64,000 bases of DNA from the NCBI GenBank assembly GCA_000296795.1, contig BAFH01000003.1, positions 1,426,401-1,490,400 of the forward strand. The letters are read 5' to 3'. Origin of the DNA: Candidatus Jettenia caeni. GTDB lineage: Bacteria; Planctomycetota; Brocadiia; Brocadiales; Brocadiaceae. The stretch's first letter is position 1. Each line of letters opens with the position of its first letter. Below the pieces are notes generated by a model, which searched no databases, had not been told where the DNA came from, and was given only the letters and a program-made list of their open reading frames with translations. The translations under genes and the position numbers were made by a program. Positions 588 to 60,064 of this stretch are shown here, piece by piece.

Positions 588-638
588 TGTAGGGCGAGGC
601 TTTAGCCTTGCCAGGCAACCCTGAAGGGTTGCCCTACA
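588..638. repeat. 51-bp composite palindromic repeat (family A)
   Basis: The outer arms TGTAGGGC and GCCCTACA are inverted. Inside are two smaller palindromes built on GAGGC-TTTA-GCCTTGCC and GGCAACCC-TGAA-GGGTTGCC. Further copies lie at 17459-17483, 18552-18628, 22645-22816 (interrupted), 35926-36098 (interrupted) and 46014-46116. It sits just after the lysC stop, so the transcript could fold here. Confidence 0.85.
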
Positions 639-8984: not shown

Positions 8985-9194
8985 AGTAAGACAGGGGAAT
9001 GACAAAAAACACATTCCATTCCGGTGTTTCCCGGGAGATTCATGTAATCTCCTCAAAAATCAATCAAAATCTATGGATACTCATGAAAACTTCTCGAATG
9101 TTAGGTATATCCTGGTTTGCAATCTCATGTAATGTATAGGAATTTCAAAGCGAGTCTGATAGGGATAGGGAAGACAATCATCTCCCCTCCCTCC

Positions 9195-9227
9195 GAACCA
9201 TACAGGAGGGTCTCCCGCATACGGCTC
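9195..9227 (-). ncRNA. Orphan group II intron domain V
   Basis: Read on the minus strand, the sequence starts GAGCCGTATGCGGG and ends TGTATGGTTC. The first eight and last eight bases pair (GAGCCGTA with TATGGTTC, with G-U pairs), which is the outer stem of domain V, including the AGC catalytic triad position. The inner stem is poor. No reverse-transcriptase gene is nearby, so this is a decayed end. Confidence 0.55.
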
Positions 9228-9405
9228 TCCAGTCAGTGGGTTCCCCATCGGGATTGATCAATTAGTATCTGAGCTGTGGTTACTGTGAACAAAATGAGAT
9301 ATACCTCAATCTGTTATTTCCAGCAATGTTAAAATATTCCAATTGAATTCGCTGAAAATACCAGGAAGCTCATTCACAGATTAAATATACACCAAACAAA
9401 TTTGT

Positions 9406-11501: not shown

Positions 11502-11697
11502 TTTCTCTCATCTTTTGTAAAAGAGGCTCACGAATATCTCGTGATAATTCTCTTGTCTTTGTGCATAGTGGCCGCTTCTGGCATGTACCATACTCTCCCT
11601 TTGTGAACCTTATGATTCCATTGACGGCTCTCAGTCTTCTCTGTTCTGGTCTTCCAGTATATTAACCGCTTTCCTTCCGGACATACATAGAGTGATC
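11502..11697 (-). pseudogene. Fragment of a second IS1182-type transposase
   Basis: This segment matches part of the intact neighbour (about 12172-12410) base by base over most of its length, with substitutions and an internal deletion near 11690. No open frame survives. It shows that an older, diverged copy of the same family was present before or beside the intact element. Confidence 0.72.
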
Positions 11698-11775: not shown

Positions 11776-13658
11776 ACAGGCTGTCCGAGAAAGTGGTTAA
11801 TAAATAAGAGTAAGAGATAAAGGAAATTGTGGATAAATGAAAATACCATCGATAAACAAGCCAGGAAAAGGTTAACCTATTTTCATCCAAAACATCCTTT
11901 TATGTCAGGAGCATAAAAAGGACATGGAACTACTACCCTAAGGGCTTGTTTTCCTCGTATTACCTTAATACCGTGGCAGGCCTTATTCCCATTTTCAGCA
12001 TCTTTTTTAAATTCCATCCAATACACATCAACTGAAATTCCGCACGGACTTTTTCCAGTCCTCGTAAGAGAAAGTTTCGATACCCCACGTTGAATTTCAA
12101 ATGCCCGAAGACTGGTTCGATGATATACTGACGCATAAAATATTTTCGCCTTCCCTCATCAGATGTCAACTTCTCTCTCATCTTTTGTAAAAGAGGTTCA
12201 CGAATATCCAGGAACAATTCCCTTACCTTTGCCTTTGTGCATAATGACCGCTTCTGACATGTCCCACACTCCGTCCCCCTGTAAACCTTATGATTCCACT
12301 GACGGCTCTCTGTCTTCTCTGTTCTGGTCTTCCAATATAGTAACTGCTTTCCTTCCGGGCATACATACCTATCGCTTGCCGCATCATAGGTAAAATTGGT
12401 AGAGTGATATCGATTCTCTTCCTTTTTATATGCTCCTGACTTGTACTGCTGAAAATGATCATCCGGAATATATCCATCGATCTCTCTCTCTTCAAGATAC
12501 TCATAATTTGCATAGCTCCCGTACCCGCAATCTGCCGCAACTTCTTTAACTTTCTCCTGAGTATTTGCCTCTGTCAGCTCTAGCACAGATTTCAATTGGT
12601 TCCGGTCATTCGCTTCCGTTACCGCCTCCGATGCTACAATAATCCCACTCTCGGTTACCACTGTCTGACAGTTGTAGCCGGGACGTATGTCTTTACTTCC
12701 CCCGCTTTTCATATGATTGGCATCCCGATCGGTAAGATTGATCTTCTCTTTTCCTTCCTCCTTCATCACCTCCAGCGCCTCTTCTATCTTCTTTTTCAGG
12801 TATGTACGGTCTGATAACTTCTCCTGTAATGCCTCTTGTTCAGGATCTACTTTGCAGGTATCGTCTTCTTGTTTGTCGATCGTTTCTGCTTCCTGAAGTA
12901 ATGTCGCTATCTCCTCTTCTATCCCTGAGAGCCATTTCTCAAACCCCGCACGATCTTTCGTCCGCTTTGCCGATGCATTCCCTTTGAGCTTGGTCCCATC
13001 CAGGTATATCTTTCCTACGCTGGTATACCCCAACTCACTGAATATCCTTACGATATCCACAAAATACTTCTCTATCGCTTTGAGATTATTCTTGCGAAAA
13101 TCGCTTATTGTCCGATGGTCCGGCGTGTAGCATTGTATCAGATACATATACACATGATCGCTCAGGCATCTCTCTTCTAGCTTTCTACTACTCCTTAACC
13201 CTGTTGCATACCCATAAAAGAGCACACTTAAGAGTAACTTCGGATGATAGGTACGTTGGCCTAACAAAGAATAGGTCGCCTCTGTTGCTTCGGTGTCTAA
13301 CGAGAATACGACCTCTTTGACTAATCTGCACAGATGGTCTTTGGGTAATACCGTTTCGATATAATCTAAAAACGCTTCGGGAGTAAACCTCATCAGGGGT
13401 TTCTGGAATTCATGAAATGGTTTAAATTTCGCCATATGATTGATTCTCCTTGGATTTTCTCTTGGTAAGGCAATGAATGAATCAGCATATTTCTTCGGTG
13501 ATATCGTTGGCTCGAAGCAAAATTTTAACTGATTATTGTGGTTTTGTTTTGGGGTTCTCATTGGTACTTCATTATATCATTGTACTGGATTGCCTCAACT
13601 AAATTGTCACTCTCTTTCTAACAAAATTTGAAAAACCCTCCATTCTCGGACAGCCTGT
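11776..13658 (-). mobile_element. Complete IS1182-family insertion sequence
   Basis: 16-bp terminal inverted repeats ACAGGCTGTCCGAGAA lie at 11776-11791 and inverted at 13643-13658, giving an element of about 1.88 kb. It holds one transposase gene on the minus strand. No clear target duplication is visible (left flank AATGTAT, right flank TTACC). The same ends occur on two 120-bp MITEs at 22681 and 35942. Confidence 0.82.
11960..13435 (-). CDS. IS1182-family transposase
   Basis: About 491 residues from the ATG at 13435, chosen because AAGGAG lies 10 nt upstream; a longer frame to 13561 adds a Lys/Asn-rich stretch that is probably not translated. DDE-type transposase: an N-terminal DUF772-like helical domain (LDYIETVLPKDHL through TISDFRKNN), the first Asp in KIYLDGTKLKGNAS, the second in VAADCGYGSYANY, a Cys-rich finger-like insert (CGTCQKRSLC), and the final Glu in IEPVFGHLKFNVGYR. 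It looks intact and could be active. It may also mobilise the small MITEs that share its ends. Confidence 0.88.
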   Translation of the reverse strand: MAKFKPFHEFQKPLMRFTPEAFLDYIETVLPKDHLCRLVKEVVFSLDTEATEATYSLLGQRTYHPKLLLSVLFYGYATGLRSSRKLEERCLSDHVYMYLIQCYTPDHRTISDFRKNNLKAIEKYFVDIVRIFSELGYTSVGKIYLDGTKLKGNASAKRTKDRAGFEKWLSGIEEEIATLLQEAETIDKQEDDTCKVDPEQEALQEKLSDRTYLKKKIEEALEVMKEEGKEKINLTDRDANHMKSGGSKDIRPGYNCQTVVTESGIIVASEAVTEANDRNQLKSVLELTEANTQEKVKEVAADCGYGSYANYEYLEEREIDGYIPDDHFQQYKSGAYKKEENRYHSTNFTYDAASDRYVCPEGKQLLYWKTRTEKTESRQWNHKVYRGTECGTCQKRSLCTKAKVRELFLDIREPLLQKMREKLTSDEGRRKYFMRQYIIEPVFGHLKFNVGYRNFLLRGLEKVRAEFQLMCIGWNLKKMLKMGIRPATVLR

Positions 13659-22020: not shown

Positions 22021-22897
22021 TAATGAATTTATGGCAAAAAGCATCTGTTTTTCGAAAATGTATGAACGAAAATGCTCTTTACTGTTTGACTGATAGGCCC
22101 GAAGGGCTGGAAGTGTATAGACAGGGATGAAGTTCCTGAAAAAAGCAATACTACAACGACAGCCCCAAAGGGGCGAAGGAAAAGGAGTATGCTATCAAGA
22201 GAATAATCTTCTTCTACCCTTTCGGGGCTAGTTTGATTGTATAGGAATTTTCATTTTATTTAAATAGGGTGTGGTAACTCCTACACTGTCAATAGAATTC
22301 ATGATAATAGGGCTGTGTCATTGCGAGGGTATTGTCCGAAGCAATCCCTTGAATATTTCAAAAGAGATTGCTTCGGGAAAATACCCCCTCGCAATGACAA
22401 ATACAAGAGAGTCTGTTATTATAAATTAAGTTGACAGTGTAGTAGGGCGGATTAAGCGATAGCGAATCCGCCTTTTCTGGAAATAGTAATGGTGGATTCG
22501 GCGTAAAAACTAACGCCTTAATCCACCCTTATATGTTATGGTGTATAGGAATTTCAAAGCGATTCTGTAGTGGCAAGGCGCGCCTTGCCACTCCTGTTAT
22601 AAAAGTTGCTGAAGGCCTAATTTAGCGTTAAGGAATTTCAATTCTGTAGGGCAACCTTTAGGGTTGCCTGGCAAGGCTAAACAGGCTGGCCGAGAATACT
22701 TTCACACGACAAATCCTATACTATATGTTGACAAAATATTAGCACGGCAACAATAATTAGTATGGCATTTGTGAGTCAATTGAATTCTCGAACAGCCTGT
22801 AAAGCCTCGCCCTACATTATGATCTATGTAACTACAGAGTGAGAGAACAATGGCCAGGAGTGTTTCTCTTTAAGTTACTTATACAGGGTAAATCCTT
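22021..22897. repeat. Repeat island between treZ and glgE
   Basis: About 880 bp without a gene and holding at least six repeat families. These are a GCCCCAAAGGGGC/CCCTTTCGGGGC palindrome (about 22153-22229), the GTATAGGAATTTC motif (22240, 22540), the ATTGCGAGGG inverted repeat (22320-22395), a GTAGGGCGGATTAAGCG repeat with a distant arm (22442-22529), a GGCAAGGCGCGCCTTGCC palindrome (about 22573-22590) and a family A repeat split by a 120-bp MITE (22645-22816). Confidence 0.8.
22681..22800. mobile_element. 120-bp MITE, copy 1, inside a family A repeat
   Basis: The ends ACAGGCTGGCCGAGAAT and, inverted, ACAGGCTGTTCGAGAAT match the IS1182 ends at 11776/13643. There is no coding capacity. The element sits in the TAAA loop of a palindrome: flanks read GGCTAA on the left and AAAGCC on the right, implying a 2-bp AA duplication. 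It is about 90 percent alike to copy 2 at 35942. Confidence 0.82.
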
Positions 22898-35925: not shown

Positions 35926-36098
35926 TGTAGGGCAAGGCTTTACACGCTGTCCGAGAATGCTTGCACACGACAAATCCTATACTATATGTTGACAAAATAT
36001 TAGCACGACAACAATATTTAGTCTGGCATTTGTGGGTCGATTGAATTCTCGGACCGCTTGTTTAGCCTTGCCAGGCAATCCTAAAGGGTTGCCCCTAC
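35926..36098. repeat. Family A palindromic repeat split by MITE copy 2
   Basis: TGTAGGGCAAGGCTT lies left and TTAGCCTTGCC with GGCAATCC/GGGTTGCC right of a 120-bp insert. Without the insert the repeat is 53 bp, close to the 51-bp form at 588. No gene lies between 35785 and 36415. Confidence 0.8.
35942..36061. mobile_element. 120-bp MITE, copy 2
   Basis: Same length and about 90 percent alike to the copy at 22681. The ends are ACACGCTGTCCGAGAAT and, inverted, ACAAGCGGTCCGAGAAT. The flanks GGCTTT and TTAGCC imply a 2-bp TT duplication in the TTTA loop of the host palindrome, the same site as copy 1. Confidence 0.82.
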
Positions 36099-36149
36099 GG
36101 AATGGAAATTTCTCAATGTTAAACGCAGAGATACAAGATACACAATGTT

Positions 36150-43585: not shown

Positions 43586-43681
43586 ATTCGCCCGGCAACC
43601 CTGCTACCATATTCTTAATGAAGATTTAGGCCAGTGGCTTTGCGTCCCATCCTTTCGAATGGTTTGCCTTTATCAGGTTTC
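43586..43681 (-). promoter_or_regulatory. c-di-GMP-I (GEMM-I) riboswitch aptamer
   Basis: Read on the minus strand: GATAAAGGCAAACCATTCGA, then AAGGATGGGACGCAAAGCC, then ACTGGCCTAAATC and finally GGTAGCAGGGTTGCCGGGCG. All conserved GEMM-I parts are present: GGCAAACC, a short P1b hairpin with GAAA loop, GGGACGCAAAGCC, GGCCTAA pairing with the GGTAGC side, and the closing GTTGCC. The ligand-contacting G (second G of GGCAAA) is kept, favouring c-di-GMP over cGAMP. Confidence 0.92.
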
Positions 43682-46013: not shown

Positions 46014-46116
46014 TGTAGGGCAAGAGTTTTATGATGTAGGGCAAGGCTTTAGCCTTGCCTCCTCTCGCTTAAACGTGCACGGGGGATAGGATAGCAACCC
46101 TAAAGAGTTACCCTGA
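46014..46116. repeat. Family A repeat with partial tandem duplication
   Basis: A TTTTATGATGTAGGGCAAG unit appears twice in tandem (about 46006 and 46027), followed by GGCTTTAGCCTTGCC and a decayed GCAACCCTAAAGAGTTACCC arm. The remainder of 45963-46270 has small palindromes (GGTTCA/TGAACC, TTGAAT/ATTCAA) but no gene. Confidence 0.65.
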
Positions 46117-59911: not shown

Positions 59912-60064
59912 TCTTCCGATAAAGGCAAACTCTGAGTAATCAGGGGGCGCAAAGGAAAGGGTCTTGTAACCGTGGACAGTGTTCGTGAACAGTGTCAGTA
60001 TAAGTAAAAGACACTTACACCCATAACTGGAACGATGAAAATAAGATAGCCTTACTGCCGAAGA
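59912..60064 (+). promoter_or_regulatory. c-di-GMP-I (GEMM-I) riboswitch aptamer with enlarged P2 arm
   Basis: TCTTC (59912) pairs with GAAGA (60060) as the outer stem. GATAAAGGCAAAC, then a P1b hairpin TCTGA-GTAA-TCAGG with a GNRA loop, then GGGCGCAAAG and GGGTCTT follow. The P2 3' strand AAGATAGCC and the closing CTTACTGCCG complete the aptamer. The P2 arm carries about 77 nt of extra hairpins (for example TAAGT/ACTTA). The ligand-contact G of GGCAAA (59925) is kept. Confidence 0.85.

What the first reader, a model, noticed from the sequence alone, without database searches (positions are those of the whole stretch)
22645..22816. MITE inserted in the loop of a palindromic repeat, same site as a second copy
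Removing 120 bp restores a 52-bp family A repeat with outer arms TGTAGGGC/GCCCTACA. The insert splits the TAAA loop with a 2-bp AA duplication. The copy at 35942 splits the TTTA loop (the same loop, opposite strand) with TT duplicated. Two independent insertions at one base position argue for selection of a hairpin or cruciform loop as target.
Basis: seen in the sequence. Interest (0 to 1): 0.74.

Follow-up and report, generated by a model that had tools for sequence, protein, structure and literature searches.

The report
Mini-transposons targeting loops of palindromic repeats
Short, gene-less transposons in an anammox-type bacterium land again and again in the 4-base centre of one family of palindromic repeats, most likely because the IS1182-type transposase presumed to move them (one copy lies in the same window) reads a symmetric DNA sequence that these repeats happen to match, rather than because it recognises a folded hairpin.

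Summary
The insertion is real. The element is 118 bp (22682-22799) with a 4-bp target duplication (TAAA; TTTA at the second copy, 35943-36060), not 120 bp plus 2 bp. A sister genome has both orthologous palindromes empty, each with a single loop. At the first site a second sister genome carries a different MITE subfamily in the same loop, so insertion there happened at least twice. Genome-wide (22 copies here, 48 in two sister genomes) 48 of 70 insertions sit in the 4-bp loop of a palindrome; 0.9% of comparable sites would do so by chance. The likely parent, an IS1182-family element with the same 16-bp ends, lies in the window (11777-13657). Non-palindromic insertions share a symmetric motif, about GKCANNNC-TNNA-GNNNTGMC. 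A matrix trained only on those predicts heavy palindrome use. Hairpins without the motif are common but almost unused. About one palindrome insertion in five has an inverted duplication (TTTA..TAAA), best explained by later hairpin-templated correction. Verdict: a REP-targeting IS1182 MITE family, a new variant of a known kind.

The parts
22682..22799 (.). MITE copy 1, 118 bp, ends CAGGCTGGCCGAGAAT / ATTCTCGAACAGCCTG
   Evidence: boundaries fixed by empty site in G001
22678..22681 (.). left copy of the 4-bp target duplication (loop TAAA)
22800..22803 (.). right copy of the 4-bp target duplication (loop TAAA)
22645..22816 (.). interrupted family A repeat (TGTAGGGC..GCCCTACA); arms GGCAAGGC 22670-22677 and GCCTCGCC 22804-22811; a second, uninterrupted palindrome GGCAACC-TTTA-GGGTTGCC at 22650-22668
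35943..36060 (.). MITE copy 2, 118 bp, same subfamily (90% identical)
35939..35942 (.). left copy of the target duplication (loop TTTA)
36061..36064 (.). right copy of the target duplication (loop TTTA)
35926..36099 (.). interrupted family A repeat; arms GGCAAGGC 35931-35938 and GCCTTGCC 36065-36072 (outer limits approximate)
11777..13657 (-). full-length IS1182-family element with the same 16-bp ends (CAGGCTGTCCGAGAAA / ATTCTCGGACAGCCTG), probable source of the transposase
11960..13561 (-). IS1182-family transposase, 533 aa, intact frame
   Evidence: NF033551, 378 bits, cut-off 270; Pfam DDE_Tnp_1_6, DUF772
593..612 (.). empty family A palindrome loop (GGCGAGGC-TTTA-GCCTTGCC)
46040..46059 (.). 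empty family A palindrome loop (GGCAAGGC-TTTA-GCCTTGCC)

Best explanation
The inserts are MITEs mobilised in trans by an IS1182-family DDE transposase, one intact copy of which lies in the window. A transposase dimer binds a roughly 20-bp symmetric duplex target, half-site about G-K-C-A-N-N-N-C on each side of a 4-bp core TNNA, cuts with a 4-nt stagger, inserts the element and duplicates the core. Family A palindromic repeats (stems GGCAAGGC, GGCAACCC, GGCAAACC around TAAA/TTTA) are among the best matches to this target in the genome and present in a hundred or more copies, so most insertions fall precisely in their loops. An insert framed by palindrome arms makes a longer imperfect hairpin, in which template switching later rewrites one flank to match the other, giving inverted duplications TTTA..TAAA. 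Shown: target duplication, empty sites, independent re-insertion, shared motif, same ends on the IS. Inferred: trans-mobilisation, dimer binding, the correction step.
For: Same 16-bp ends on MITEs and on IS1182-type elements in this window and in Jettenia, an Aminicenantes MAG, Brocadia pituitae and order-level relatives. 48/70 118-class copies in palindrome loops, background 0.9%. Empty orthologous sites for both window copies, and a different MITE subfamily in the same loop in G002. Symmetric half-site in non-palindromic sites and in the 98-bp subfamily, whose bases next to the core pair only 19% of the time; GGGGTCAxxxC-TTTA flanks in other genera. The non-palindrome matrix ranks family A loops at the top and allots 55% (118-class only: 83%) of weight to palindromes. 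Motif-free hairpins (180 of 211) receive 1 of 48 hairpin insertions. Inverted duplications: flanks remain collinear in relatives at L162, L167, L174, L179; at L174 and L179 the rewritten left arm is the exact complement of the right arm.
Against: The motif matrix rests on 32-67 half-sites and its prediction interval is wide (19-97% for the 118-class), so an added contribution of hairpin structure cannot be excluded; family A stems are both palindromic and motif-bearing, so for them the two causes are confounded. The MITE-IS link rests on the 16-bp ends; the subterminal sequence differs. Many motif-free 'hairpins' in the census are short and AT-rich and may not extrude. No transposition has been observed.
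Confidence: 0.78

Rival explanations
1. The transposase recognises an extruded hairpin or cruciform and attacks its loop, as proposed for IS1272 (pathway c of Wan et al. 2017: loop-only duplication); sequence plays little part.
For: Strong loop preference with three different stems; a member of the same family, IS1272, is reported to target inverted repeats of unrelated sequence (PMC5678879); a second IS1182 element of this genome also sits at the centre of a different palindrome.
Against: Non-palindromic sites share the half-site; motif-free hairpins are almost unused; in the 98-bp subfamily the bases next to the core do not pair.
Confidence: 0.15
2. Repeat and MITE spread together as one composite element, so the shared position is inherited rather than targeted.
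For: Nearly all occupied repeats belong to one repeat superfamily.
Against: Orthologous palindromes without the MITE exist in sister genomes for both window copies and for other loci; several subfamilies use the same position; one orthologous loop holds different subfamilies in two genomes; insertions outside repeats carry normal 4-bp duplications.
Confidence: 0.02
3. Inverted duplications (TTTA..TAAA) are a record of insertion into an extruded cruciform: the gaps are filled while the arms are folded, leaving mismatched loops on re-absorption.
For: Ten inverted cases, in motif-bearing palindromes, and flanks unrearranged at tested loci.
Against: At L174 and L179 the outer arm was rewritten as well, which correction after insertion explains better; direct duplications predominate.
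Confidence: 0.12
4. Inverted duplications come from crossing-over or gene conversion between MITE copies at different repeats.
For: Chimeric stems exist (L196, L198); copies are numerous.
Against: Left and right flanks of four inverted loci are adjacent and collinear in sister genomes, which excludes reciprocal crossing-over there; short conversion tracts remain possible.
Confidence: 0.25

Closest known systems
IS1182 family (including IS1272)
   Same: transposase scores 378 bits against NCBIfam NF033551; some members are reported to target palindromes (PMC5678879, citing Siguier et al.)
   Different: IS1272 is reported to replace the whole inverted repeat, without duplication and without a target sequence; here the palindrome is kept, 4 bp are duplicated and a symmetric sequence motif is shared
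IS1397 / ISKpn1 (IS3 family) inserting into palindromic units (REPs)
   Same: insertion specifically into a repetitive extragenic palindrome (PMC1525189)
   Different: unrelated transposase family; full IS rather than MITEs
IS621, ISPpu9, ISPpu10, ISPa11 and other REP-targeting ISs (five families listed in PMC1525189)
   Same: REP-type repeats as landing sites
   Different: IS1182 is not among the five families found there (IS3, IS110, IS4, IS256, IS5)
Quasipalindrome correction by template switching
   Same: makes inverted-repeat arms identical (PMC7202029, PMC8604942; abstracts only)
   Different: here it would act on palindromes lengthened by a MITE insertion, converting direct into inverted target duplications

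Membership tests
IS1182 family (for the element at 11777-13657) | transposase matches the family model above its curated cut-off | tested here: met
   NF033551, 378 bits versus 270
IS1182 family (for the element at 11777-13657) | terminal inverted repeats bounding one transposase gene, about 1.7-1.9 kb | tested here: met
   16-bp ends, 1720-1903 bp in relatives, 1881 bp here
IS1182 family (for the element at 11777-13657) | target duplication at this full-length copy (not a strict criterion; the family is described as heterogeneous) | tested here: inconclusive
   flanks TATA and TTTA, no exact duplication, may be decayed or rearranged; another full-length copy shows TCAA/TCAA (L238)
MITE of an IS1182 element | short, no coding capacity, same terminal repeats as an autonomous element in the genome | tested here: met
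MITE of an IS1182 element | target duplication of one constant size | tested here: met
   of 42 copies in G002, 32 have an exact direct 4-bp duplication, 9 an exact inverted one, 1 is mismatched; empty sites
MITE of an IS1182 element | mobilised in trans by the IS1182 transposase | not testable with these tools
   needs a transposition assay
IS1272-type stem-loop replacement | target stem-loop deleted, no target duplication | tested here: not met
   palindrome arms retained, loop duplicated (one possible exception, L196, loses the segment between two loops)
REP-targeting insertion element | most copies inserted in repetitive extragenic palindromes | tested here: met
   48 of 70 118-class copies

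The most novel reading that the evidence does not exclude
The transposase inserts into extruded cruciforms of REP-type repeats, and inverted target duplications (TTTA..TAAA) are a readable genomic trace of insertion into a folded target.
Probability: 0.12. Interest if true: 0.7.

Novelty: new variant of a known kind. Interest (0 to 1): 0.42.

Why it matters
It is a natural test of whether transposons that hit palindromes see structure or symmetric sequence: three genomes of one genus give 70 insertion sites, empty orthologous sites and at least one loop hit twice by different subfamilies. The result favours sequence symmetry, in contrast to the structure-only view published for IS1272. It also gives a simple account of why MITEs accumulate in intergenic repeats, and describes inverted target duplications that standard TSD-based annotation would miss.

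Tried and rejected
Composite spread of repeat plus MITE: rejected by empty orthologous sites. Two-bp duplication with a 120-bp element: rejected by non-palindromic copies with 4-bp duplications and by the empty sites. Hairpin as sufficient cue: rejected by the census of motif-free hairpins. The 1714-bp element at C3:1008856 as autonomous parent: no IS1182 hit there; its frames look to me like a broken IS110-type transposase, a reading from memory not tested with a family search. Crossing-over as source of inverted duplications: rejected for four loci by collinear flanks. L161 was uninformative because its right flank is repetitive. I first took the element-internal sequences to be unrelated; the 115-119-bp subfamilies in fact share internal TACTATATATTG-like inverted repeats (read by eye). 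No paper on MITEs in Brocadia was found.

Full report
Setting. The window is C3:1426401-1490400 of a 4.09-Mb genome in four contigs. Relatives of the transposase found here come mostly from Brocadia and Jettenia, and a family-level relative (G234) has a contig of exactly the length of the Candidatus Brocadia pituitae record (4,075,302 bases), so the host is inferred to be an anammox planctomycete of that family.

The observation. A 118-bp element, CAGGCTG..CAGCCTG, lies at 22682-22799 between two TAAA tetranucleotides inside GGCAAGGC-TAAA-GCCTCGCC; a 90% identical copy lies at 35943-36060 between two TTTA inside GGCAAGGC-TTTA-GCCTTGCC. Because the sites are palindromic, the data at these two sites cannot tell 118 bp + 4 bp from 120 bp + 2 bp. 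Copies outside palindromes can: their duplications are CTAA, TTAA, ATAG, TCTG, TCAA. In sister genome G001 both orthologous sites are empty and hold one TAAA and one TTTA respectively.

Copies. In the home genome a search for the 16-bp end with up to two mismatches gives 60 ends, which I paired into 25 elements plus isolated ends. The elements fall into several subfamilies: a group of 115-119 bp that shares internal inverted repeats, and a 98-99-bp group. Sister genome G002 has 42 pairs with exact ends, G001 has 6. Of the 118-class copies, 14/22 (home), 31/42 (G002) and 3/6 (G001) have at least 6 of 8 complementary bases flanking the 4-bp core; among 23,036 TNNA sites in 284 kb of home sequence 0.9% do, among TTTA/TAAA sites 1.3%, and among CTTTAG/CTAAAG sites 16.6%. 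After removal of one shared orthologous insertion there are 47 palindrome sites and 24 others.

Independence. The locus of the first window copy holds a 119-bp element of a different subfamily in the same loop in G002, and nothing in G001. A second likely case is C4:331269 (home) versus L170 (G002), whose right flanks are orthologous and whose subfamilies differ. So insertion into one loop has happened more than once, and the repeat did not arrive with the MITE.

Sequence or structure. Three results argue for a symmetric duplex motif instead. First, the 24 non-palindromic 118-class sites keep G at -8, C/T at -6, A at -5 and C at -1 on both sides, and the 98-bp class keeps GTCA at -8 to -5 (T 0.81, C 0.81, A 0.75), while the bases adjacent to its core pair in only 19% of cases. 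In other genera the ends are preceded by GGGGTCAxxxCTTTA or GGGGTCAxxCCTTGA. Second, a matrix made from these sites only, with family A half-sites left out, ranks family A loops at the top of all TNNA sites and gives 55% of its weight to palindromes; trained on the 118 class alone it gives 83% (bootstrap 19-97%), against 69% observed. Third, of 211 TNNA hairpins in the sample 180 have no half-site, but only one of 48 hairpin insertions (L173, where the motif is shifted by one base) lacks it. The caveats are the wide interval and the confounding of motif and palindrome within family A.

The transposase. The window carries an IS1182-family element at 11777-13657 with the same ends and an intact 533-aa transposase. 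Homologous elements in Jettenia, an Aminicenantes MAG, Brocadia pituitae and others have the same ends at similar distance from the gene. A second IS1182 element of this genome, with six transposase genes of identical score (29% identical to the first), sits in most copies at the centre of a different palindrome, CCCCTCCC..GGGAGGGG. Palindrome choice thus looks like a habit of the family, with a different sequence for each transposase; this is inference from two elements.

Inverted duplications. Ten palindrome insertions have TTTA on one side and TAAA on the other; only three palindrome copies show other mismatches, so random mutation is an unlikely source. At L162, L167, L174 and L179 the flanks are adjacent and collinear in relatives, so crossing-over between dispersed copies is excluded there. 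Orthologous empty sites show which side changed. At L174 and L179 the left arm was rewritten to be the exact complement of the right one. The best reading is template switching within the long imperfect hairpin formed by arms, duplications and terminal repeats, a process known to make inverted-repeat arms identical (PMC8604942, PMC7202029). Insertion into an extruded cruciform, or short conversion tracts, remain possible.

Comparison with the literature. IS1397, ISKpn1 and IS621 insert into REPs, and five IS families (not IS1182) were linked to REPs by Tobes and Pareja (PMC1525189). IS1272, an IS1182-family member, was reported to replace inverted repeats without target duplication and without sequence preference (PMC5678879); their model includes a loop-duplicating pathway, which is the outcome seen here. 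The present case is therefore a known kind (REP-targeting element, IS1182 with palindrome preference) in a new variant: MITEs, loop duplication, and evidence for symmetric sequence as the cue.

Verdict. Real, well supported, of moderate interest. The most open point is how far hairpin structure adds to the motif.

Noticed in passing
L092-L097 (six loci of the home genome): A second IS1182-type element in six near-identical copies, ends GAGACTGTGTC, sits in most copies at the centre of a CCCCTCCC..GGGAGGGG palindrome that also occurs empty (L090:17534).
   Followed up: partly
L196:401-518: MITE joined on the left to a GGCAACCC loop and on the right to a GGCAAGGC-type loop, as if the segment between the two loops of one repeat had been deleted; a possible one-step replacement or recombination between two MITEs.
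   Followed up: no
L071:2001-3714 (C3:1008856-1010569): 118-class ends 1714 bp apart enclosing frames that look like a broken IS110-type transposase, probably a nested insertion; not checked with a family search.
   Followed up: partly
window 11600-11690: Stretch resembling part of the transposase gene next to the full-length IS1182 element, possibly a truncated second copy.
   Followed up: no
L176:401-518 (G002): MITE of one subfamily inserted inside a MITE of another subfamily, with ATAG duplicated.
   Followed up: no
window 22442-22530: About 88-bp repeat (GGGCGGATTAAGCGATAGCGAATCCGCC..) present in many copies in G001 and G002.
   Followed up: no
window 43591-43678 (-) and 59914-60062 (+): Two c-di-GMP-I riboswitches above the Rfam gathering score.
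   Followed up: no
window 9159-9229 (-): Group II intron domain match, 43 bits versus 40.
   Followed up: no
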